The notes beneath the pieces were generated by a model, which did no database searches, was not told where the DNA came from, and saw nothing but the letters and a program-made list of their open reading frames with translations. A DNA stretch of 26,444 nt from a virus, in the IMG/VR virus record IMGVR_UViG_3300035703_000378, positions 1-26,444 of that record. One strand, written 5' to 3'. Below are positions 1-25,251 of the stretch, piece after piece. The position numbers and the translations under genes are program-made. How positions within the stretch are numbered: position 1 is the stretch's first letter; the number at the start of each line of letters is the position of its first letter.

Positions 1-14
1 TCGGTGAGTGACAT
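1..14 (-). CDS. Start of a gene that leaves the left edge (begins MSLT)
   Basis: An ATG at position 14 (minus strand) opens a frame reading Met-Ser-Leu-Thr before the window ends. The case for a real start is its context: the sequence upstream copies the leader and promoter of the 77-aa gene that starts at 17183, including the same CACACCATG around the start codon and a CCTAAC a few bases before it. Nothing can be said of the product. By analogy with the second copy it could be a small accessory protein. Confidence 0.5.
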
Positions 15-38
15 GGTGTGCGTTAGGTTTGAGTTTGC

Positions 39-100
39 ATTGCCTGCTGGCAACGAGACCACCATACACGACCCGTTCTCCCCGTCCACTTATTTTCGTT
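39..100 (-). promoter_or_regulatory. Promoter A with dyad operator at the expected start site
   Basis: Read leftwards: an A-rich box AACGAAAATAAGT (100-88), a -35-like TGGACG (88-83), a 16-bp spacer, a -10-like TATGGT (66-61), 7 bp, then the perfect dyad TTGCC-AGCA-GGCAA (53-40), and after a 25-base leader the ATG at 14. The same elements in the same spacing occur at 17206-17270. The A-rich box may act as an UP element. The dyad lies where RNA would start, so it is either a repressor operator or a 5' hairpin. The promoter hexamers alone are weak; the duplication is the evidence. Confidence 0.6.
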
Positions 101-181
101 CTTTGGCGCATTTTCTGCGCAATTCCTCAGTCCGCATAAGGTTTTGCTGCGGTTTTCCTGTTAGGATCGGGGCGCTAACAG
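101..181. other. Intergenic stretch with small hairpins and three GTTAGG/GCTAAC words
   Basis: No gene is seen. On the minus strand there are two short stems: CCGCA/TGCGG, and GCGCA-GAAAA-TGCGC just upstream of promoter A. Neither is followed by a T-run, so no clear terminator follows the hub gene that stops at 182. The 13-mer GCTAACAGTTAGG (174-186) combines two CTAAC words as an inverted pair and recurs as GCTAACTGTTAGG at 18945-18957, also at a gene end. Confidence 0.4.
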
Positions 182-2665
182 TTAGGACGGGGGCGCGGTG
201 CCTACCGTCGTCACCGTGACGGGGTATGCCATCACGATGCCGTCGTGCCTTTGCTCGACCGTGATGACCGAATCGGCTATGCCAATCTCAGCCAGCAGTA
301 TATGGGAGAGCGTGTCGGTATCTGTTGGGGTCGTGGACTGCTTAAGGATGGCGGCTGCGGTGCAGGCCCAAGTTTTCCGGCGGATTGTGGCCGTTGTGAA
401 GACAGTCACTACGGCTGTTGTCGGGCCCCCCACGGCTCCGGCTGCTGGCGGGTCATATCCAGGGTCGCCAGGCTGTCCCGGTCCTCCGCCCGCCCCGGAT
501 CCGCCAACTCCGCCAAACCCGCCAGCGCCGCCACCCAGAGCAGACCCCCCGGATCCGCCAGCGCCACCGTCGCCGCCCTCGCCTCCCGGATCGCCGCCGA
601 TGCCTGTAGTGGCCCCGCTGACTCCAGCAGTCCCCGCGAGCCCGGTGGCTCCTGGCTCCTCGCCACCGCCGCCCCCGCCGCCACCACCACCAGCGCCACC
701 GCCACCCCCGCGGCCCCCGTCGCCGCCGTATCCACCGTCACCTCCCTTACCCCCGAGCCCGCCCGTGATTGAAACCGCAGACCCGCCAGTCAGCGCCCCG
801 GAAACGTTCGTATCGGAAAGCGTATGTGTTAGGCGTAGCCAGATCTTGTCACCGTTCGCCACCGATAGCGTGGACGCGGCAACGGTTATGGTCTTGCCGA
901 TCTTCGTTAGGTTCCCGCTCCCGTCAATCTCCGGCGTCTTGACCTGTCCGGACGCTACCTCAACGGACGTATTCGTTTTTGCCAAGACGGTGAAAAACTT
1001 CTTCGGCGGTGGCGGTGCAGCCCTAACGGAATTCCGCTGCCTCGCCGCAACGCTGCCGGATACGTTAGACTTTCCGGACAATGCCCCGGATGTCCTGACA
1101 GCGGAGCCGGAAAACGATGGCTTTGCGGCCCGCTCGCCGCCACGCTGAAGGGCGATGAAATCCTGCGGTGCAAGTCGGGTGTTAATCGGACCATAGCCCA
1201 CCGTAATCCTGCCCGAAAAGATGTCAGCGACGACGGACTGGATGACAGCGCCAGTCACCGGGTGATGTCCTGTCAGGGTCAGCTTCTTCCCCGGCACGAT
1301 GCTGCGGTCGATCTCCGTATCCACCCACGTCACGCTGCCCGCCTGCGGCTCCGATGACAGCGCGTCGTAATAGGATTGAGCCAGCCCAGCAGGTGCCGTC
1401 TCGCCGCCCGTAGTGGCGCTTGTGCGGTACGTCGTGGTCTCGCAATCCGTGCCTGTAAGGTCAACCGTTAGGGTCAGCTCCTTCTTCGCCCCGGAAAACA
1501 GCTCGCGGATGGTATCGTTTTCCGCGGTGCCGACCCAGCGCAGCACAACGGTCACTTTGACGGGACAGGCCGAGACGCCGCTTTGCCAAGGAGGGACGGA
1601 ACCACCAACCAACTCCCGTGGGTATTTCGGGATTCCACCCGTTTCTGGGATGCTGCCAAGACCAACTTTCCGGGCCGTGTCTACCTCTTGGTCAATGCTG
1701 ACAACGGAAACCATGCCCGCCCCGAGGTTCAGTCCTTTGAGGTCCGGGAAATGGTCAATCAGCCATGCGCCTGTAACCGCCCCCGCCGTCTGCGGAATCG
1801 TTTCCGTTAGGCACTCTTGCGACTGCGTGACCGTATCGGTGCCGTTAAGCGCAATCGTCCGCCGCACGATGTCCAGTCCGCTAGTTGCTCCTGCCGTCTG
1901 CTGCGTGATGGACGTATAGGTCTGCCCGTCCACGGTGTTTGATGTCTCAAACGTCAGCACCACCCCGTTCACCGCCCGCCTTGTTAGAGGCTTGACGCGG
2001 TACTGCCGCGCACCGCTGCCATTGCCGCTCATCGCCTTTGTGATGATCGGAGTTAGGGCTGCTGGCTTCTTGACGTTTAGCGTGCTGCTTACGTGGTCAA
2101 AATACAGAACCGCATCCGGATGCCAGCGCATCACCTGCCCGATGCACTCCCACGCCGTCGCGTCCACCACCTCAATCTTCGGATAGTAGATTGCGCCAGT
2201 TGCCAGGATGCTACCAGCAGAGACCCCGGTGGCGCTCTGTGCATACTGGACAATATCCGTTATGCTCTGCGCCGTTGTCTCTGCGGTGCCGTTAAGGGCA
2301 AGCCCGAGCACGCAGCGGGTTTTGTATGCCAGCGTATTCCCTGCCCCTGTCGCATATTCCTGCTGATAGGTAATCCGCGCCAGATTGCCCTGCTTGCCGT
2401 TACAGTTGACGGTCCATCCCTCTGAGCCGCCGTCCGCGTAAGGCTCGACCTGCGTCACATAGCCGACGAAATACGTGGTTCCTGAGTAAGCAATAGTGAC
2501 CGCTTCGTTGACGGTAAACGGTGCGGGTGACGTGGTAGCGTCTTTTGCTAGGGTAAGCGATGCGGAGTCAATGCCGCCCGCATTAAAGCTACACTGCGCC
2601 CCGGAGATCTTTGCATCAGCAAAGGACACCACAGCGCCGCCGCCTCTTTGGATTGTCCAACTCAT
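182..2665 (-). CDS. Large tail hub/adhesin protein with polyglycine-rich domain
   Basis: This 827-aa protein follows the tape measure gene (4-bp overlap), the usual place for tail tip, hub or receptor-binding proteins. Residues about 1-500 are beta-rich, with an early segment (AYSGTTYFVGYVTQVEPYA) of the kind seen in phage hub proteins. A proline-rich segment (APPPPKKF) near residue 550 leads into a second domain. Residues about 633-745 are very glycine rich, with GG-X repeats and a run of about ten Gly. A folded-looking C-terminal domain of about 80 residues follows. Such a layout resembles adhesins with polyglycine-II bundles (known for phage S16 gp38), but no sequence homology to them is claimed. 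It ends TCC-TAA-C within the CCTAAC word. Role as hub or adhesin is inferred from position and composition. Confidence 0.65.
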   Translation of the reverse strand: MSWTIQRGGGAVVSFADAKISGAQCSFNAGGIDSASLTLAKDATTSPAPFTVNEAVTIAYSGTTYFVGYVTQVEPYADGGSEGWTVNCNGKQGNLARITYQQEYATGAGNTLAYKTRCVLGLALNGTAETTAQSITDIVQYAQSATGVSAGSILATGAIYYPKIEVVDATAWECIGQVMRWHPDAVLYFDHVSSTLNVKKPAALTPIITKAMSGNGSGARQYRVKPLTRRAVNGVVLTFETSNTVDGQTYTSITQQTAGATSGLDIVRRTIALNGTDTVTQSQECLTETIPQTAGAVTGAWLIDHFPDLKGLNLGAGMVSVVSIDQEVDTARKVGLGSIPETGGIPKYPRELVGGSVPPWQSGVSACPVKVTVVLRWVGTAENDTIRELFSGAKKELTLTVDLTGTDCETTTYRTSATTGGETAPAGLAQSYYDALSSEPQAGSVTWVDTEIDRSIVPGKKLTLTGHHPVTGAVIQSVVADIFSGRITVGYGPINTRLAPQDFIALQRGGERAAKPSFSGSAVRTSGALSGKSNVSGSVAARQRNSVRAAPPPPKKFFTVLAKTNTSVEVASGQVKTPEIDGSGNLTKIGKTITVAASTLSVANGDKIWLRLTHTLSDTNVSGALTGGSAVSITGGLGGKGGDGGYGGDGGRGGGGGAGGGGGGGGGGEEPGATGLAGTAGVSGATTGIGGDPGGEGGDGGAGGSGGSALGGGAGGFGGVGGSGAGGGPGQPGDPGYDPPAAGAVGGPTTAVVTVFTTATIRRKTWACTAAAILKQSTTPTDTDTLSHILLAEIGIADSVITVEQRHDGIVMAYPVTVTTVGTAPPS

Positions 2666-4248
2666 TTTGCGGTACGGAGGTCGTCCAGTTCGGACTGTAG
2701 TTTTTCGAGTTTGGCCCGCGTTTTGTCGTCAAGCGTCCGCATGTATGGCAAAAGCTGCTCCAGCAGTTTCATCAGCGCATCAGTATCTTTTGCGCCAGAT
2801 GCCGCGTTGAGTTGCGACATGAATTGCGAGCTTGCGCCACTGCCAGCCAATGCAGACGCGAGCGATGAGCCAGCAGAAGCGGCTTCGTCCACGTCCTTCT
2901 GCCGCTTCGCTGCCGCCTCATCCGCCTTCCGCTTTTCTTCCGCTTGCCGGGTCCGCTCTGCCGCTGAAGTCCGCATTGCTTCGGTCTCGGCCCGCATTGG
3001 AATCAGTTCCTCCAGTGTGCCACGCCGCCCCGCAGCAGACGCCCCAGACGCCGCCGCTTCCTCCTGCCGCTTCCGGAACTCCAGTGCTTGCCTTTCGATC
3101 TGTTCTCTCTGCTGCTGGAAATCCTCTTGGCTCTTTGTCCCCGTTGCTGTCCTAGCCTTTTCGTCCTCGACTAACTTACCTTGCGTTTCCGCCAGCACCT
3201 TTTTCGCGGAAGCCACCTTGCGGTCTGCGTCCGTCATCTGCTTTTGCAGGTCATTTTGCGCAGCGGCACGCATGGATGGGTCCATGATCCCTGCCCCATT
3301 AAACTCATCAAAGGCTTTCTTCTTGGCCAGATATTCCTCCTTGGCAGTCTCAAGATACTGCTGGTTTGCATCAAGTAGCTGCTCCTGATACTTCCGCTGG
3401 GCTTCTGTTAGGATTTTCTCACCGTTGGCTTGGTTCATTTTGCCAGCCAGAACCTCTTGAGTGCGCCGGTCTCCCTCCGCTGCCGCCTCCATTTCCACCT
3501 TTGCTTGTTGCTCCGCGGCTTTAAGCCTCTCAATCTCAATCTGCTCCCTTCGCGCCGTTGCCTGCGCACGTGCACCCGCCCGCTTTTGTGTTGCTTCGCC
3601 TGCGGTGATTTCGCCGGCCGCCTCTTGCAGGTCAATCATTGCAATGGTTTTCTCAAAAGCAGCATCCGTCCGCTTCATTTCCGCATCTGCCGCCTCTTCC
3701 TGCTTGCGAAATGCGCGATCTGCCGCCGATGTCGCCTCATCGTAAGCGGTCGTGGTGTTGCGCAGTTCGTTGGCGAGTTCCCGCTGGGATTTTGCTAGTG
3801 CTTCCGCTTTCTCTGCTGCAATGCGTGACTCGTTGGCGAGCTTGTTTAGTTCCTGCTGGTTTTTCTCTGCTTCCTCCGCTGCCTTTGCCGCCTCGGTGCC
3901 AAACAGGTCAAAGTTCTTTGTTAGGATTTGCACCCCAACCGCCGCAGCTTGAGCCACCCCGGCAACGCCCATGCCAAGGCCAAGACCGGAAACCATCATC
4001 GGGATGTTGTTGATCATCCCTGCCATGCCGTACTGAGCGTCTTGGAATGCGTTGGATAGGGCAAGAACGCCCATCGCGGAATTGCTGCTGCTCTTACCCA
4101 GTTCCTTGCTTGCCTGACTGGCCCCGTTTGCGGTGACCGTCGCCTGCTTGGCTGCATTCGCAACGCTAGTCATCGCTGCCGCCGCCGCCTTTGCCTCGGC
4201 AGAGTTCGCCTTGATGTCGATGCCGACCGTTAGGTTTTTGTCAGCCAT
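2662..4248 (-). CDS. Tail tape measure-like protein
   Basis: The 528-aa product has the composition of a tail length tape measure: Ala/Lys/Glu/Gln-rich helices with long coiled-coil potential over residues about 120-460, and one hydrophobic, glycine-rich stretch around residues 75-110 (MINNIPMMVSGLGLGMG) that may act as the membrane-active segment. A low-complexity Ser/Ala segment and a final charged helix close it. At 528 residues it would set a rather short tail for a siphovirus. It overlaps the gpG-like gene upstream by 8 bp and the hub gene downstream by 4 bp, an order typical of tail operons. No peptidase motif is visible. Confidence 0.7.
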   Translation of the reverse strand: MADKNLTVGIDIKANSAEAKAAAAAMTSVANAAKQATVTANGASQASKELGKSSSNSAMGVLALSNAFQDAQYGMAGMINNIPMMVSGLGLGMGVAGVAQAAAVGVQILTKNFDLFGTEAAKAAEEAEKNQQELNKLANESRIAAEKAEALAKSQRELANELRNTTTAYDEATSAADRAFRKQEEAADAEMKRTDAAFEKTIAMIDLQEAAGEITAGEATQKRAGARAQATARREQIEIERLKAAEQQAKVEMEAAAEGDRRTQEVLAGKMNQANGEKILTEAQRKYQEQLLDANQQYLETAKEEYLAKKKAFDEFNGAGIMDPSMRAAAQNDLQKQMTDADRKVASAKKVLAETQGKLVEDEKARTATGTKSQEDFQQQREQIERQALEFRKRQEEAAASGASAAGRRGTLEELIPMRAETEAMRTSAAERTRQAEEKRKADEAAAKRQKDVDEAASAGSSLASALAGSGASSQFMSQLNAASGAKDTDALMKLLEQLLPYMRTLDDKTRAKLEKLQSELDDLRTAK

Positions 4249-6068: not shown

Positions 6069-6442
6069 GCGATTCGTCCGGTGATTTGCCACTGAATGGT
6101 GACACTGCATCCCTGCCGCGAGCCGTTTGCTAGGGTGACAAGTGCGTCAGCCAAGGAAAGTACCGTGCCAGACTCCGCAAATGTCACGCTTACCGGAGCC
6201 GTGAAGTCGTCCTTCCACCCCATAAGCGCAGCAATCGCAGCCGCTGGCGTAGCATACTCATAGACGACGGAAAAAGAACAGGAGGCACTGCGATTCTTGC
6301 GCCGAAACATGGCGGGACCGTCCGCGCCGATAATAGGCTCGACTGAATCGGCGTCGGAGAATGACAGGGTAAACCCCTGTTCATCCTCGACTTTGCCGGA
6401 GTCGGCCCCAGCTATCGCAATGCCTCCTGCTGTAATGGTCAT
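6065..6442 (-). CDS. Small tail-associated beta protein, unknown
   Basis: The 125-aa product (MTITAGGIAIAGADSGKVED) is rich in beta-prone residues and has no hydrophobic segment. It starts in an ATGA overlap with the larger tube-like gene upstream and ends in an ATGA overlap with the 55-aa membrane gene. Position and size fit a tail tube companion, neck or chaperone protein. No family is recognised with confidence. Confidence 0.55.
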   Translation of the reverse strand: MTITAGGIAIAGADSGKVEDEQGFTLSFSDADSVEPIIGADGPAMFRRKNRSASCSFSVVYEYATPAAAIAALMGWKDDFTAPVSVTFAESGTVLSLADALVTLANGSRQGCSVTIQWQITGRIA

Positions 6443-12616: not shown

Positions 12617-12985
12617 TTAGTAGAGGACCACCTTGACCAGACCGCCAGCCGCGGCGGCTTCCTGCGCCCGTCCGACCTTGGTGCCGGAAGCGAACGCTTT
12701 GACTTTGCCGATGTCGGTCGTAGCGGCGAATTCAACTTCTTGCCCGGCGGTGATGTTGCCAGCAGACAGAAGCCTGATTTCAGCGCCACGGGCAAGTGGC
12801 ATGCAATCCACTCGGGATCCGCTGATGCCGCTCGTAAGAGCGACCATGCAGATGGGTCCGGTGGCGGGAGCCGCGACGACTTGGTCGGCGGTTGAATGAG
12901 GCGTGACGAGCATGCCTTGGGTAATCGCGCCAGACGCCGTGTAGGGGCGGCGGTCCTGACGCACATCGAACAGGGGTTCAGCCAT
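12617..12985 (-). CDS. Capsid cement / decoration protein (DUF2190-like)
   Basis: The 122-aa product is a small beta protein with the rhythm of DUF2190 capsid cement proteins: SGAITQGMLVTPHSTADQVV, then GPICMVALTSGISGSRVDCM, LARGAEIRLLSAGNITAGQE, and a closing VGRAQEAAAAGGLVKVVLY. Such proteins bind between capsomers and stabilise the shell. It lies directly before the major capsid gene. Its leader is A/C-rich (ACCAACCTAACACAATAAC before ATG) with no Shine-Dalgarno site. Confidence 0.65.
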   Translation of the reverse strand: MAEPLFDVRQDRRPYTASGAITQGMLVTPHSTADQVVAAPATGPICMVALTSGISGSRVDCMPLARGAEIRLLSAGNITAGQEVEFAATTDIGKVKAFASGTKVGRAQEAAAAGGLVKVVLY

Positions 12986-16949: not shown

Positions 16950-17183
16950 TTAAGCGAGACTCAGCGCAGCGAGATTTGATCTAAATTTAGGCGTCCAATT
17001 CCGATGGACGCAGCGGGACAGCCCATCTTTAGATTGCGCTGAGAATTCGTGAACCTCGCACAGTACTCCGCGATCCTTCAGCTCATTGGCTGCTTTGACT
17101 GCAAGGTGCCTGTCGGTCATTACTGATCCGATCTGCTCTCCAAGAGCGGCTGATGAAGTGCGGGACATGATGACGTATTGCAT
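16950..17183 (-). CDS. Unknown 77-aa protein driven by promoter B
   Basis: The start is ATG 17183 (MQYVIMSRTSSAALGEQIGS), set by the conserved CACACCATG shared with the gene at the left edge; a longer frame to 17288 would run through the promoter and is rejected. Residues 10-60 form an alpha/beta unit (SVMTDRHLAVKAANELKDRG, VLCEVHEF) and the C-terminus is basic. A monocistronic unit with promoter and terminator is typical of phage morons. The product is not recognised; small single-domain proteins in such units are often anti-host or anti-defence factors. Confidence 0.65.
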   Translation of the reverse strand: MQYVIMSRTSSAALGEQIGSVMTDRHLAVKAANELKDRGVLCEVHEFSAQSKDGLSRCVHRNWTPKFRSNLAALSLA

Positions 17184-17205
17184 GGTGTGATGGTGGTTAG
17201 GGTTA

Positions 17206-17270
17206 ATTGCCTGCTGGCAACGCGGACAGATTAGCACAGCCCGCGACCCGCGCAATGACTTATTTTCGTT
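17206..17270 (-). promoter_or_regulatory. Promoter B with dyad operator
   Basis: Read leftwards: A-rich box AACGAAAATAAGT (17270-17258), -35-like TTGCGC (17255-17250), a 16-bp spacer, -10-like TAATCT (17233-17228), 7 bp, then the perfect dyad TTGCC-AGCA-GGCAA (17220-17207) and a leader with CCCTAAC before the ATG at 17183. Dyad, A-rich box, spacer length and dyad offset are the same as in promoter A at the left edge. Sequence between these elements differs, which argues for selected sites rather than a recent copy. Confidence 0.65.
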
Positions 17271-17281
17271 TTTCTTGCGAG

Positions 17282-18943
17282 TCACCACCGGGCGAAAAAT
17301 CCGTCAAACTCCGGCTCGCCTACCTCGACGGCTTGCAGGTCTGCCATATCCCATCCGCCGAGGTTGCCAGCGAAGTAGCCGTGGAGCGCGAGGGCGATCG
17401 ACCAGAACCTGTCCGCGTGGTCGTTAGAGTCCTTGGCTGATGCCACCAGCACCCGGCTCCCACGGATGACGCGGCACGGTTTCCGCATGTCCTCCCGGAG
17501 GGCGTCGTCATGGGGCAGGGCGATCTTGCCATCCTCCATTGACCGTTGCAGGTCCACTGCCATGCGCTCCGAAATCAGCATGGTGGCCCGTTTGTCGCCC
17601 GATGTCCGCAACACGTCATCGAGGGGAACGGTGGAGGCAAAGTGCACAGGGAGAATAAGCGACCCGTACCGTTCCGCGAGTTCGTCACTGAGCCCGGTTC
17701 CGTTGCCAGTCATATCCATAACTACCCGCTGAACGCGTCCGCCTACCGCTCCCATCAGTCGCTCCATCTGACGCCGTTGGTGCGGGGTCGTCTGGTCCCG
17801 CATCTCAAGCCGTGCAACGTGGACGCAGGAGCCTTGGGATTCTGCTAGGACGGACACCACCGACAAGTCCCCGTTTCGGGCGAAGTCCTGCCCAACGTAG
17901 AGCGAGGCGTTGCCGTGGTGGCGGGCGAGGCTTGCAAGGGTGGAATCGCTCCATGCCTGCTGGTCCGGGGTAAACGCGGGCGCGGTCATGCATCGGGTGA
18001 TCAAGTCCCAGCTCAGAAACGGCAGGTTGTCGCCATGGTAGGGCTCATTTTCGTAGTTTTGCCGATACTCCGCCTTAGCCCATCCAGCTTCCGCTTCAGC
18101 TTCGTCCGGCGTGATTTCGTGGACCGCTTCGCCGTCTTTCGGCTGGCGTATCAGACTGCCGATAACAATCCGGTCCTGCGGCTGCGCCTGCATGTACCTG
18201 GGCGACGCCTTCCACGCCGCGAATGCTTTTGGGTCCAGTCTCTCCCAGCGGTCAGCGAACTCCCGCAGATGCCGCTCCGATCCTTGCCCCATGTTCCACG
18301 CCTCGCTGCGCTTGATGCTGGCGACTGGAAACCTCCCGTCCTGCACCCATCGGTGGAAGAGCGTGCCGATGCCGTTGTGGGTGCTGGCGATGCGCACCTG
18401 ATATTCCGGGTTGGCGCTGACTATCGGTTCCGCTGCGTCCCAGATTTTGTTAGCGTTTTCATGGTGGGCGAACTCATCAAGTGCCAGATCCCCAGAGAAT
18501 CCGCGGGCGGTTCTCGGGGATGCAGCCAGCACCATGATGCGCCCCTTCTTCCCGGAAAGCCTGATTTCCATTCGCTGCGCGAAGTCCTCAATCTCAATCG
18601 GCGCACCTGACAGGATTGCCCTGTCCTCATCCGTCACCCGTTCCGGTTCCTCGCGCGTGAATGACTCCAACTGCCCGCGAATCTGTGCGTCAGCTTCGCG
18701 GACGGCTTCAAGGACATCGCTGATTTTCTGCCCGAATTCGATGCCGTTGCTCTTGCTGTTACTGATGACGACGATCAGCCAGTTGCGCACCTCTGGTCTG
18801 GACAGTCGCTCAAGTAGTCGAGCGACCGCCCAGTTTGCCATGGTGAAGCTCTTCCCTGTCTGCCTAGCAAACTCCACTAACAGAAACTTCCCCCGGAAGA
18901 GGAAGACGGGAAGCTGATACGTGCGGAGCTTGAGTGCGGGCAT
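17282..18943 (-). CDS. Terminase large subunit (Mu gp28-like)
   Basis: The 553-aa protein is a packaging ATPase/nuclease. Walker A is ARQTGKS at residues 26-32, an adenine-binding RQ as in terminases; Walker B is GDLALDEF near residues 151-158, with the catalytic Glu; ASTHNG near 190 fits the coupling motif. The nuclease half has VGQDFARNGDLSVV, VVMDMTGNGTGLSDEL and a final Asp-rich KDSNDHADRFWSIALALHG, the RNase-H-like acidic set. It packages DNA into the prohead through the portal. The portal gene is not adjacent: an accessory cassette of about 1.7 kb separates them. The start follows a GCTAACTGTTAGG junction with no Shine-Dalgarno site. Confidence 0.85.
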   Translation of the reverse strand: MPALKLRTYQLPVFLFRGKFLLVEFARQTGKSFTMANWAVARLLERLSRPEVRNWLIVVISNSKSNGIEFGQKISDVLEAVREADAQIRGQLESFTREEPERVTDEDRAILSGAPIEIEDFAQRMEIRLSGKKGRIMVLAASPRTARGFSGDLALDEFAHHENANKIWDAAEPIVSANPEYQVRIASTHNGIGTLFHRWVQDGRFPVASIKRSEAWNMGQGSERHLREFADRWERLDPKAFAAWKASPRYMQAQPQDRIVIGSLIRQPKDGEAVHEITPDEAEAEAGWAKAEYRQNYENEPYHGDNLPFLSWDLITRCMTAPAFTPDQQAWSDSTLASLARHHGNASLYVGQDFARNGDLSVVSVLAESQGSCVHVARLEMRDQTTPHQRRQMERLMGAVGGRVQRVVMDMTGNGTGLSDELAERYGSLILPVHFASTVPLDDVLRTSGDKRATMLISERMAVDLQRSMEDGKIALPHDDALREDMRKPCRVIRGSRVLVASAKDSNDHADRFWSIALALHGYFAGNLGGWDMADLQAVEVGEPEFDGFFARW

Positions 18944-23807: not shown

Positions 23808-24500
23808 TTAGGGTGCGGCAACGGTGGCGTTGCTCTGCTGGTTGTCAATCGGTTTTTCGTTTCGTTCGCTCCAATCTGCCGTCTCGCACTGCAACAGGTA
23901 GCTCCCATGGCGATGCAGTCGGGAGGAAATCCGGTGGTCCCGGTCGCTCCACTGCGCCGGGGACAGATTGGTCGTCATGACGGTCCACCTGCCTATGCGG
24001 ACGTTGAGCAAGTCGAGCAGATAGGAAGCTGTCCATTCCGTCTGATGCTCTGCCCCTGCGTCGTCGATGACAAGCAGGCCCGCCTCCCTAGCAAAGCCCA
24101 GCTTGTGCGTGACATCGCCTCCGGATTGCTTGCGGGTGCAGAGGTTCGGCCAGTTGAGGAAGCAGGTCGGCGGGGTGGCTGGCAGGTGCATCCTGACGGC
24201 TTCCGCGATGAGCCTAGCCAAGTGCGTCTTCCCGGTGCCGTTCCCTTTGCCATTTGCGCCCCAGAGCGTCAGCCAGCACGGCGGGCGGCTCTCGCGGACG
24301 CTGCGGACGTACCGGGCTGCGATGTGGCGCATTTTCGTTAGGACGGGATCCGTTAGGACGTGGAACGAAGCAAGCTCAGTCTCGATGGCTTTCAGGTCCG
24401 TCGAGCTTGTCGGCGTTGAGCCATGCTCTGCGCTCTTCTGAGAGCGTGAAGCCCTCGCCGTTTCGGCTAGACGTGCGATTCGGTCGGCTATGGTTTCCAT
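23808..24500 (-). CDS. DnaC-like replicative helicase loader (AAA+ ATPase)
   Basis: The 230-aa protein is a DnaC/IstB-type AAA+ ATPase. A short helical N-terminus leads to LTLWGANGKGNGTGKTHLAR (Walker A), AGLLVIDDAGAE (Walker B), VMTTNLSPAQW (sensor 1) and RDHRISSRLHRHG, which holds the arginine finger. It would load the replicative helicase of host or phage at the origin. It overlaps the initiator-like gene by 125 bases in another frame, a long overlap. The stop is CCC-TAA-C. Confidence 0.8.
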   Translation of the reverse strand: METIADRIARLAETARASRSQKSAEHGSTPTSSTDLKAIETELASFHVLTDPVLTKMRHIAARYVRSVRESRPPCWLTLWGANGKGNGTGKTHLARLIAEAVRMHLPATPPTCFLNWPNLCTRKQSGGDVTHKLGFAREAGLLVIDDAGAEHQTEWTASYLLDLLNVRIGRWTVMTTNLSPAQWSDRDHRISSRLHRHGSYLLQCETADWSERNEKPIDNQQSNATVAAP

Positions 24501-25194
24501 TTTGTGGTGGGGTTGCGATTGATGCGTTGCGCTGCCAGTTCCTCACAGCGGCTTTCCAGTCCTTCATGGGATTGCGCCCGACTCGCCACCCGTTGCTCTC
24601 GTAGTAGTCCCAGAAGCGCTGGGCTTCGACGGGTGGCAGTGCTGGCTCAAGGGTCATTCCGTAAGTCACGACATCCATGGCGCTTTGCGGTCGTGCGTCG
24701 CTCCGCTTGCGGGGCGATGCAGATACAGTTGCGAGTACTGATTCCGATTCCTGTTTCTGTTCCTCTTTCAATTCCCCTTCCTCTTCCTCTTTCTCTTTCG
24801 TTAAAGCATTCCTTGAAGGTATGCTTGAAGGTATGCTTGAAGGTATGCTTGAAGCATAGCTTGCCGGAGACTTTGGCGAGCGCCCACCCTTGCGGCCCCC
24901 TTCCCGTTTAGCTTGAACGGCTTGCTCCTGTTTTTCCGGATATTCCCACACGACCAGATTGCCTTCGGCGTCCCAAGTCCAGAGTGCGCATTTTGTGCGC
25001 AGGGTTGCGCCCTCCACGTCCATCAGCCGCTGCCACTGCCGATCGGTGAACTCCGCCGCGCCACGGATGACGCCCCCGTTTTCCTGCTGCGCGCAGTAGA
25101 GAAGCAGGTGGAACCATGCCAGTTGCTGGGCGGATTCCGCTGACGTGTACTCCGGTCCTTGGGTCCGGATGATTTCGATATTGAGCCAATGCAT
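24376..25194 (-). CDS. Putative phage replication initiator
   Basis: From ATG 25194 (MHWLNIEIIRTQGPEYTSAE) the protein has 272 aa; a TTG at 25251 would add 19 residues through a hairpin. The N-terminal 100 residues (AWFHLLLYCAQQENGGVIRG and FTDRQWQRLMDVEGATL) resemble winged-helix starts of phage replication proteins. Then follow a basic linker, the repeat SSIPSSIPSSIPS, an acidic coil, and a C-terminal unit FWDYYESNGWRVGRNPMKDW with KAAVRNWQRN, a typical ending of phage DnaD/O-type initiators. Paired with the DnaC-like gene it should form the replication module. Confidence 0.65.
   Translation of the reverse strand: MHWLNIEIIRTQGPEYTSAESAQQLAWFHLLLYCAQQENGGVIRGAAEFTDRQWQRLMDVEGATLRTKCALWTWDAEGNLVVWEYPEKQEQAVQAKREGGRKGGRSPKSPASYASSIPSSIPSSIPSRNALTKEKEEEEGELKEEQKQESESVLATVSASPRKRSDARPQSAMDVVTYGMTLEPALPPVEAQRFWDYYESNGWRVGRNPMKDWKAAVRNWQRNASIATPPQNGNHSRPNRTSSRNGEGFTLSEERRAWLNADKLDGPESHRD
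24813..24860. repeat. 12-bp tandem repeat in the initiator linker
   Basis: Three perfect copies of TTGAAGGTATGC (24813-24848) and a fourth degenerate copy encode Ser-Ser-Ile-Pro repeats in the linker of the initiator. Repeats inside initiator genes can double as origin iterons; three copies without spacing variation are weak support, and slippage is the simpler reading. Confidence 0.55.
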
Positions 25195-25247
25195 GGGCAA
25201 AAAGAAGGCCCCCAGTGTAGAACCCCGCATTTCTGCGGCACTGGGAG
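25195..25247 (-). terminator. Two-stem hairpin with T-run just before the initiator gene
   Basis: On the minus strand CCCAGTG and CACTGGG enclose a nested CCGCA-GAAA-TGCGG hairpin with a GNRA-type loop, followed by GGCCTTCTTTTTG and, after three more bases, the ATG at 25194. This is a terminator shape placed directly in front of a start codon. It may end methyltransferase-operon transcripts or attenuate the replication genes. Confidence 0.55.
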
Positions 25248-25251
25248 CCAA

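What the first reader, a model, noticed from the sequence alone, without database searches (positions are those of the whole stretch)
39..100. Duplicated promoter-operator module at 39-100 and 17206-17270
The two sites share a 13-base A-rich box, 16-bp spacers between weak hexamers, an identical 14-bp dyad placed 7 bases after the -10, a CCTAAC in the leader and CACACCATG at the start. Intervening bases differ. Conserved position of the dyad at the predicted start of transcription strongly suggests one regulator, or one RNA 5' hairpin, controlling two separate small-gene units 17 kb apart.
Basis: seen in the sequence. Interest (0 to 1): 0.75.

Follow-up and report, generated by a model that had tools for sequence, protein, structure and literature searches.

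The report
Hairpin-capped promoters heading phage operons
An uncultured bacterial virus starts both halves of its one-way genome from look-alike promoters whose messages are predicted to begin with the same small RNA hairpin; relatives keep a hairpin at that spot in the first promoter but spell it differently, so it probably works as a protective RNA cap and not as a landing site for one repressor.

Summary
Both sites (window minus strand) share a 13-base A-rich box, hexamers 16 bp apart, and the only dispersed 17-bp exact repeat in the window, CGTTGCCAGCAGGCAAT. In both, the dyad starts 7 bases after the -10. The sites are not heads of small units. Two relatives that overlap end to end give a 35.0-kb circular map. 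On it, site 1 (P_A) heads the recombination/replication half and site 2 (P_B) follows the terminase and heads the structural half. P_A orthologs in other contigs keep a hairpin 5-6 bases after the -10, but with different stems: TTGCC/GGCAA, TTGGC/GCCAG, GTCGC/GCGAT, including a C-G to G-C swap and G-U pairs. A promoter search blind to hairpins gave 14 sites with a summed +1 folding energy of -66.7 kcal/mol against -18.3 +/- 6.4 in shuffles (0 of 200 as low). I conclude these are sigma-70-type promoters with an UP-like A-box, whose transcripts carry a 5'-terminal stem-loop and then an unstructured, CA-rich leader without a Shine-Dalgarno sequence. A repressor operator is the main rival. The shared CCTAAC and CACACCATG are common features of this phage's gene starts. 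CCTAAC is its most over-represented hexamer, and that remains unexplained.

The parts
88..100 (-). A-box of P_A (AACGAAAATAAGT), UP-element-like, directly upstream of the -35
   Evidence: Exact 12-base core found only twice in the window and only twice in each of relatives G001 and G002, always at these two promoters.
83..88 (-). -35 hexamer of P_A, TGGACG (first T shared with the A-box)
   Evidence: Conserved in G001/G002 while the 16-bp spacer diverged.
61..66 (-). -10 hexamer of P_A, TATGGT, after a 16-bp spacer
   Evidence: TAAGGT in G001/G002; CATGGT in G003 with a 16-bp spacer from TTGCCA.
38..55 (-). predicted 5'-terminal stem-loop of the P_A transcript, CGTTGCC-AGCA-GGCAATG; predicted +1 is the G at 54
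   Evidence: Folds as a 7-bp stem, -8.9 kcal/mol, 0 of 200 shuffles as stable; position kept and stem changed in relatives.
12..27 (-). end of the P_A leader, CCTAAC (22-27) and CACACC, and start codon ATG (12-14) of the first early gene, which is cut by the contig end
   Evidence: Read from the sequence; counterpart in G001/G002 is a 72-aa ORF.
106..120 (-). boxB-shaped hairpin GCGCA-GAAAA-TGCGC just upstream of P_A, in the intergenic stretch after the tail gene; role unknown
   Evidence: -6.8 kcal/mol; conserved in the relative and the only GAAAA-loop 5-bp hairpin in either genome.
17258..17270 (-). A-box of P_B (AACGAAAATAAGT)
   Evidence: Identical to P_A; an identical block of over 30 bases ending with it is kept in G001/G002.
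17250..17255 (-). -35 hexamer of P_B, TTGCGC
   Evidence: TTGCGC/TTGCGT plus a 16-bp spacer recurs at promoters of relatives G006, G007 and L130.
17228..17233 (-). -10 hexamer of P_B, TAATCT, after a 16-bp spacer
   Evidence: Read from the sequence; scored.
17206..17221 (-). predicted 5'-terminal stem-loop of the P_B transcript, GTTGCC-AGCA-GGCAAT; predicted +1 is the G at 17221
   Evidence: -7.1 kcal/mol, p 0.005 against shuffles; absent from the site-2 counterpart in G001/G002.
16950..17183 (-). first gene after P_B: 77-aa ORF without a Shine-Dalgarno sequence, leader CCCTAACCACCATCACACC
   Evidence: ORF and leader; no Pfam match.
17282..18943 (-). terminase large subunit; its stop codon is about 12 bp upstream of the P_B A-box
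   Evidence: phrog_2, E 3.6e-24.
182..2665 (-). 827-aa protein at the end of the structural half (tail position), upstream of P_A
   Evidence: ORF; 98% identical in G002; no PHROG.

Best explanation
The two sites are the promoters that head the two co-directional halves of a ~35-kb circular (or circularly permuted) phage genome. P_A (site 1) heads the recombination/replication half and P_B (site 2) heads the structural half. Each is a sigma-70-type promoter with an UP-element-like A-box, a -35, a 16-bp spacer and a -10. Transcription is predicted to start on the G that is the first or second paired base of a 6-7-bp stem-loop, so the mRNA carries a 5'-terminal hairpin. An unstructured CA-rich leader without a Shine-Dalgarno sequence and the start codon follow. 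The most likely job of the hairpin is to shield the 5' end of a very long operon mRNA from 5'-end-dependent decay (RppH/RNase E or RNase J type) while leaving the leader open for ribosomes. In this phage the same cap has been copied to, or acquired by, P_B. Shown by computation: anatomy, conservation of the blocks, recurrence of a hairpin at +1 with changed stems. Inferred: promoter activity, the start site, and the stabilising function.
For: Geometry and exact repeats. In an alignment with the closest relative, the A-box/-35 and the -10-to-dyad blocks are identical or nearly so, whereas spacer and leader diverge. P_A orthologs in G001/G002, G003, G006, G007 and L130 each have a hairpin at +1 with different stems: GTTGCC-AGCA-GGCAGC, GTCGC-AAGAAAC-GCGAT, GTTGGC-AGTC-GCCAGC, CGTTGGC-AGCA-GCCAGCG. 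There is one C-G/G-C double change and frequent G-U pairs; 83.7% of cells pair, against at most 55.1% when the partner strand is slid. Sites found without reference to hairpins fold at +1 with -66.7 kcal/mol in total against -18.3 +/- 6.4, 0 of 200 shuffles. The same search finds 7 modules on the coding strands and 0 on the other strands of four genomes, against 0.03 per shuffle set. Unrelated stems at about the same place follow promoters in L155, L161 and L174. Review PMC3997798: 5' hairpins stabilise bacterial mRNAs and impede RppH.
Against: No 5' end is mapped and the host is unknown, so the start site and the decay pathway are inferred. Several promoters of the same type have no +1 hairpin (site 2 of G001/G002; G007 at 12768, 18134 and 18734), so the hairpin is optional. 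A palindromic operator would also show paired changes in its arms. The covariation is modest: one double-changed pair, covariation score reached in 45 of 500 shuffles, and G003 is out of register in that alignment. The promoter criteria were set after seeing the first sites.
Confidence: 0.55

Rival explanations
1. The dyad is a DNA operator at +1. A phage-encoded dimeric repressor (for example a C1-type protein) binds it and turns down P_A, and P_B as well in this phage. Different relatives carry different operator specificities, as immunity groups do.
For: 12 of the 14 dyad bases are two-fold symmetric, including the central GC. Identical copies occur at two promoters of one phage. The composite relative encodes a protein with a weak Cro/C1-type HTH match, PF13443 E 0.0032, below the curated cutoff, in the P_A operon.
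Against: Loop length changes between relatives (4, 5, 6, 7), which would rotate half-sites. Many arms are completed only by G-U pairs, which DNA symmetry does not use. There is one copy per promoter and no secondary operators. No integrase or curated repressor match was found among the proteins scanned.
Confidence: 0.25
2. The hairpin is a boxB- or put-like antitermination signal that lets RNA polymerase read through terminators in each half-genome operon.
For: Same hairpin at the head of two long operons in one phage, and phage-specific stems in relatives, which is the logic of nut/put sites. A GAAAA-loop 5-bp hairpin lies just upstream of P_A.
Against: No boxA-like element was noticed by eye (no systematic scan was made). 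The hairpin sits at +1 itself. The P_B counterpart in the closest relatives has none although it heads a similar operon. No antiterminator-like protein was recognised.
Confidence: 0.1
3. Simple recent duplication or gene conversion of promoter DNA from P_A to P_B, with no function for the dyad.
For: P_B of the closest relatives lacks the dyad, and the P_B copy in the window equals the window's P_A copy, not the relatives'.
Against: At P_A the dyad block is kept across relatives while its flanks diverge, and hairpins recur at +1 with new sequences. The A-box and dyad are identical between sites but the bases between differ, which a recent duplication would not leave.
Confidence: 0.07

Closest known systems
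5'-terminal mRNA stem-loops that stabilise transcripts (E. coli ompA, papA and engineered bla; Emory 1992 and Bouvet and Belasco 1992, cited in PMC3997798)
   Same: Short stem-loop with no or few unpaired 5' bases, followed by an open leader; position more important than sequence.
   Different: Here they are in an uncultured phage at the heads of both operons, the leaders lack a Shine-Dalgarno sequence, and no stability data exist.
Cluster K mycobacteriophage start-associated sequences, SAS/ESAS (PMC3203893)
   Same: Repeated sequence at gene starts, about half with inverted repeats upstream.
   Different: SAS is a 13-bp G-rich repeat in 11-19 copies next to gene starts. Here the dyad is in two copies at predicted transcription starts, and the gene-start motif is C/A-rich and SD-less.
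Lambdoid nut/boxB and HK022 put RNA signals (from general knowledge, not tested by search)
   Same: Small RNA hairpins at the heads of two long phage operons, phage-specific stem sequence.
   Different: No boxA noticed, hairpin at +1, missing from one operon in the closest relatives.
UP elements of rrn-type sigma-70 promoters (general knowledge)
   Same: A-rich block next to the -35, with 1-4 bp of spacing play.
   Different: The 12-base core is identical in all copies (two per genome), which is stricter than a usual UP element.

Membership tests
Sigma-70-type promoter with UP element | Two hexamers 16-18 bp apart resembling TTGACA and TATAAT | tested here: met
   TGGACG-16-TATGGT and TTGCGC-16-TAATCT; weak matches, but spacing and type recur in relatives.
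Sigma-70-type promoter with UP element | A-rich block directly upstream of the -35 | tested here: met
   AACGAAAATAAGT at both; A-rich blocks also at G003, G006, G007 and L130 promoters.
Sigma-70-type promoter with UP element | Transcription actually starts there | not testable with these tools
   No RNA data.
Stabilising 5'-terminal stem-loop | Stem-loop at or within a few bases of the 5' end | tested here: met
   Stem begins 5-6 bases after the -10, at the predicted +1 G; -7.1 and -8.9 kcal/mol.
Stabilising 5'-terminal stem-loop | Structure kept while sequence changes | tested here: met
   Different stems at orthologous P_A, one C-G/G-C double change, G-U pairs; formal covariation is modest.
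Stabilising 5'-terminal stem-loop | Longer mRNA half-life when present | not testable with these tools
   Needs RNA half-life measurement.
Repressor operator | Palindromic site with fixed half-site spacing among family members | tested here: not met
   Loop 4 in the window and 7 in the G003 ortholog; 5 and 6 at other promoters.
Repressor operator | Cognate DNA-binding protein encoded by the phage | tested here: inconclusive
   One sub-threshold Cro/C1-type HTH match (PF13443, E 0.0032) in the composite relative; the window does not cover that region.
nut/boxB antitermination site | boxA followed by a 15-nt GNRA-like pentaloop hairpin after the promoter | tested here: not met
   The +1 hairpin has a 4-base AGCA loop; the only GAAAA-loop hairpin lies upstream of P_A. 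boxA itself was not scanned for.
Known Rfam RNA family | Match above gathering score | tested here: not met
   No match in the window.

The most novel reading that the evidence does not exclude
The +1 hairpin together with the Shine-Dalgarno-free CYAAC/CA-rich leader is a portable expression cassette of this phage lineage: a structured 5' cap plus a non-SD ribosome entry signal that can be swapped between operon heads. CCTAAC, the genome's most over-represented hexamer, would be part of a host- or phage-specific recognition code.
Probability: 0.15. Interest if true: 0.6.

Novelty: new variant of a known kind. Interest (0 to 1): 0.42.

Why it matters
It gives a concrete picture of how an uncultured, SD-poor phage lineage switches on its two gene blocks, and it turns a 'shared operator' guess into a testable 5'-cap model. 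The separable blocks (A-box, core promoter, hairpin, CA-rich leader) are a ready-made test of which parts control mRNA life and non-SD translation. It also shows that identical dyads at two promoters need not mean one repressor.

Tried and rejected
A first collection scan for A-box plus dyad used the wrong gap (40-65; true gap 34-37) and found nothing; repeated with the right gap it found only G001 and G002. A 17-base dyad scan found four unrelated contigs without promoter context, taken as chance. Megablast against annotated phages found nothing; the closest annotated terminases are about 22-33% identical over part of the protein (Mu-like and similar). A genome-contig scan with the terminase alignment found nothing. 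One with the relative's helicase found four MAG contigs of mixed phyla, one labelled Verrucomicrobia. A search of 388 genomes of that phylum found terminase relatives at E 1e-62 to 1e-80, two in chromosome-scale contigs, but the three regions fetched do not carry the module, so the host stays unproven. I considered CCTAAC and CACACCATG as parts of the module and rejected them as specific parts because they occur at many gene starts. CCTAAC as a type III restriction orientation effect or a Chi-like site could not be tested without a host.

Full report
WHAT WAS CHECKED. The window is a whole IMG/VR virus record of 26,444 bp, with essentially all its phage-like genes on the minus strand (terminase, portal, protease, scaffold, capsid, endolysin, MazG-like pyrophosphatase, DnaC-like loader). 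Read on the minus strand, site 1 is AACGAAAATAAG-TGGACG-N16-TATGGT-GGTCTCG-TTGCCAGCAGGCAA-...CCTAACGCACACC-ATG. Site 2 is AACGAAAATAAGTCA-TTGCGC-N16-TAATCT-GTCCGCG-TTGCCAGCAGGCAA-TTAACCCTAACCACCATCACACC-ATG. The identity around the dyad is 17 bases, the only dispersed same-strand 17-mer repeat in the window; 20 shuffles gave none.

GENOME CONTEXT. Terminase searches found close relatives: G001 and G002 (80% identical terminase) and G003 (62%). The ends of the first two overlap: G001 1-626 equals the end of G002, and G001 4057 onward equals the start of G002. This gives a 35,027-bp circular or permuted composite, 'C'. The two A-boxes in C sit at the counterparts of sites 1 and 2, about 18.4 and 16.6 kb apart, and occur nowhere else. 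P_A heads small genes, a RecT-like protein, a PD-(D/E)XK nuclease, an SNF2-like helicase (my reading of the sequence), a methyltransferase and the DnaC-like loader, and its half runs on to the terminase. P_B follows the terminase stop codon and heads the nuclease/portal/capsid/tail genes. So the units are half-genome operons. G003 has a 127-bp terminal direct repeat and is probably a complete circle of about 33.5 kb.

FOOTPRINT. Aligning P_A of the window with C, the A-box plus -35 (AACGAAAATAAGTGGACGG) is identical, the 16-bp spacer is largely different, the stretch from the end of the -10 through the dyad (GGTGGTCTCGTTGCCAGCAGGCA) is identical, and the leader diverges. At P_B a block ending with the A-box is identical, but downstream C has TGGACA-N16-TAGAGT-GTCGGCAC-ATG with no dyad and almost no leader. 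The A-box-to-(-35) gap varies by 1-4 bases. By general knowledge of promoters this fits an alpha-CTD/UP element better than a rigid activator site.

THE HAIRPIN IN RELATIVES. A search for A-rich block + TTG/TGGAC hexamer + 16-17 bp + NANNNT + CA-rich SD-less leader, which does not look at hairpins, picked out P_A orthologs in G003 (position 3394), G007 (78), G006/L126 and L130, as well as sites 1 and 2. G007 P_A lies 1.4 kb before its recT, as expected for an ortholog. The +1 stems are: window GTTGCC-AGCA-GGCAAT; C GTTGCC-AGCA-GGCAGC; G006 and G007 GTTGGC-AGTC-GCCAGC; L130 CGTTGGC-AGCA-GCCAGCG; G003 GTCGC-AAGAAAC-GCGAT. Further promoters in recT-bearing contigs carry other stems at about the same place: L161 GTTGC-ACGAC-GCAAC, L174 GAGCGG-CACGTT-CCGCTT, L155 TTGCC-ACAG-GGCAA. 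For 14 sites the summed best +1 energy is -66.7 kcal/mol against -18.3 +/- 6.4 for shuffles, none of 200 as low. The module count on four genomes is 7 on coding strands and 0 on the other strands, against 0.03 per shuffle set. In a structure count on seven P_A/P_B sequences, 83.7% of cells pair, against 55.1% or less for any slide, with one C-G/G-C double change and wobble toggles at two more pairs. These sequences are partly related and G003 is out of register there, so this is support, not proof.

MECHANISM. The stem starts at the base expected to be +1 (a G seven bases after the -10 in most cases). The literature held here says that hairpins at the 5' end stabilise bacterial mRNA and impede RppH, and that 5' hairpins protect long downstream regions in Bacillus (PMC3997798). 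I therefore favour a 5'-terminal cap on long operon transcripts, followed by an open, G-poor leader for SD-independent initiation. Akkermansia and another verrucomicrobial genome are listed as SD-scarce (PMC10783764), which fits the weak hint of a verrucomicrobial host, but the host is not shown. The main rival is a +1 operator. It predicts fixed half-site spacing and one sequence per repressor, but loop lengths of 4-7 and G-U-completed stems argue against it. A weak Cro/C1-type HTH protein in the C early operon keeps it alive.

WHAT IS NOT SPECIAL. CCTAAC and the CACACC-ATG start are not specific to the two sites. CTAAC or CCAAC within 26 nt of an ATG precedes many genes of the window, C, G003 and G007. 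CCTAAC is the top over-represented hexamer: 44 copies on the coding strand against 3.3 expected and 5 on the other strand in the window, 54 against 4.4 and 8 in C. Inside genes there are 25 copies against 5.2 in synonymous shuffles, maximum 13. This is a separate, unexplained signal.

LIMITS. No RNA data; site 1 is 39 bp from the contig end; the host is unknown; promoter criteria were set after seeing the first sites.

Noticed in passing
whole window, minus strand (e.g. 22-27, 17196-17201): CCTAAC is the most over-represented hexamer (44 copies against 3.3 expected; 5 on the other strand), enriched both before start codons and inside genes beyond synonymous shuffles; 22 of 27 aligned copies are conserved in the relative against 16.7 expected locally. 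It is much weaker in G003 and absent as a signal in G007. Role unknown (non-SD initiation signal, Chi-like site or other).
   Followed up: partly
106-120: boxB-shaped hairpin GCGCA-GAAAA-TGCGC (minus strand) in the intergenic stretch just upstream of P_A, conserved in G001/G002.
   Followed up: partly
about 24815-24854: Tandem repeat of a 12-bp unit (CTTCAAGCATAC on the minus strand) inside the coding region of the 291-aa ORF 24376-25251.
   Followed up: no
L032/L034 composite near C 3560-3580; L036-L037 (G003) near 6150-6175; L123 (G007) near 2380-2405: A second conserved leader hairpin, GGGGCGCGCAT..CAACGCGC, precedes early genes in three relatives, followed by CTAAC and an SD-less ATG.
   Followed up: partly
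L184-L187 (G112, G155, G273, G397): Four genomes of the phylum of G012 (a MAG labelled Verrucomicrobia) carry relatives of this terminase (E 1e-62 to 1e-80), two of them in contigs above 4 Mb, suggesting integrated relatives and a possible host phylum.
   Followed up: partly
composite of L032-L035, C 1707-2216: Early protein with an N-terminal cysteine-rich segment and a sub-threshold Cro/C1-type HTH match; candidate phage regulator not covered by the window.
   Followed up: no
17206-17283: In G001/G002 the counterpart promoter after the terminase has only 8 bases between -10 and ATG, so its mRNA would be nearly leaderless, and the gene behind it is different from the window's 77-aa gene.
   Followed up: partly
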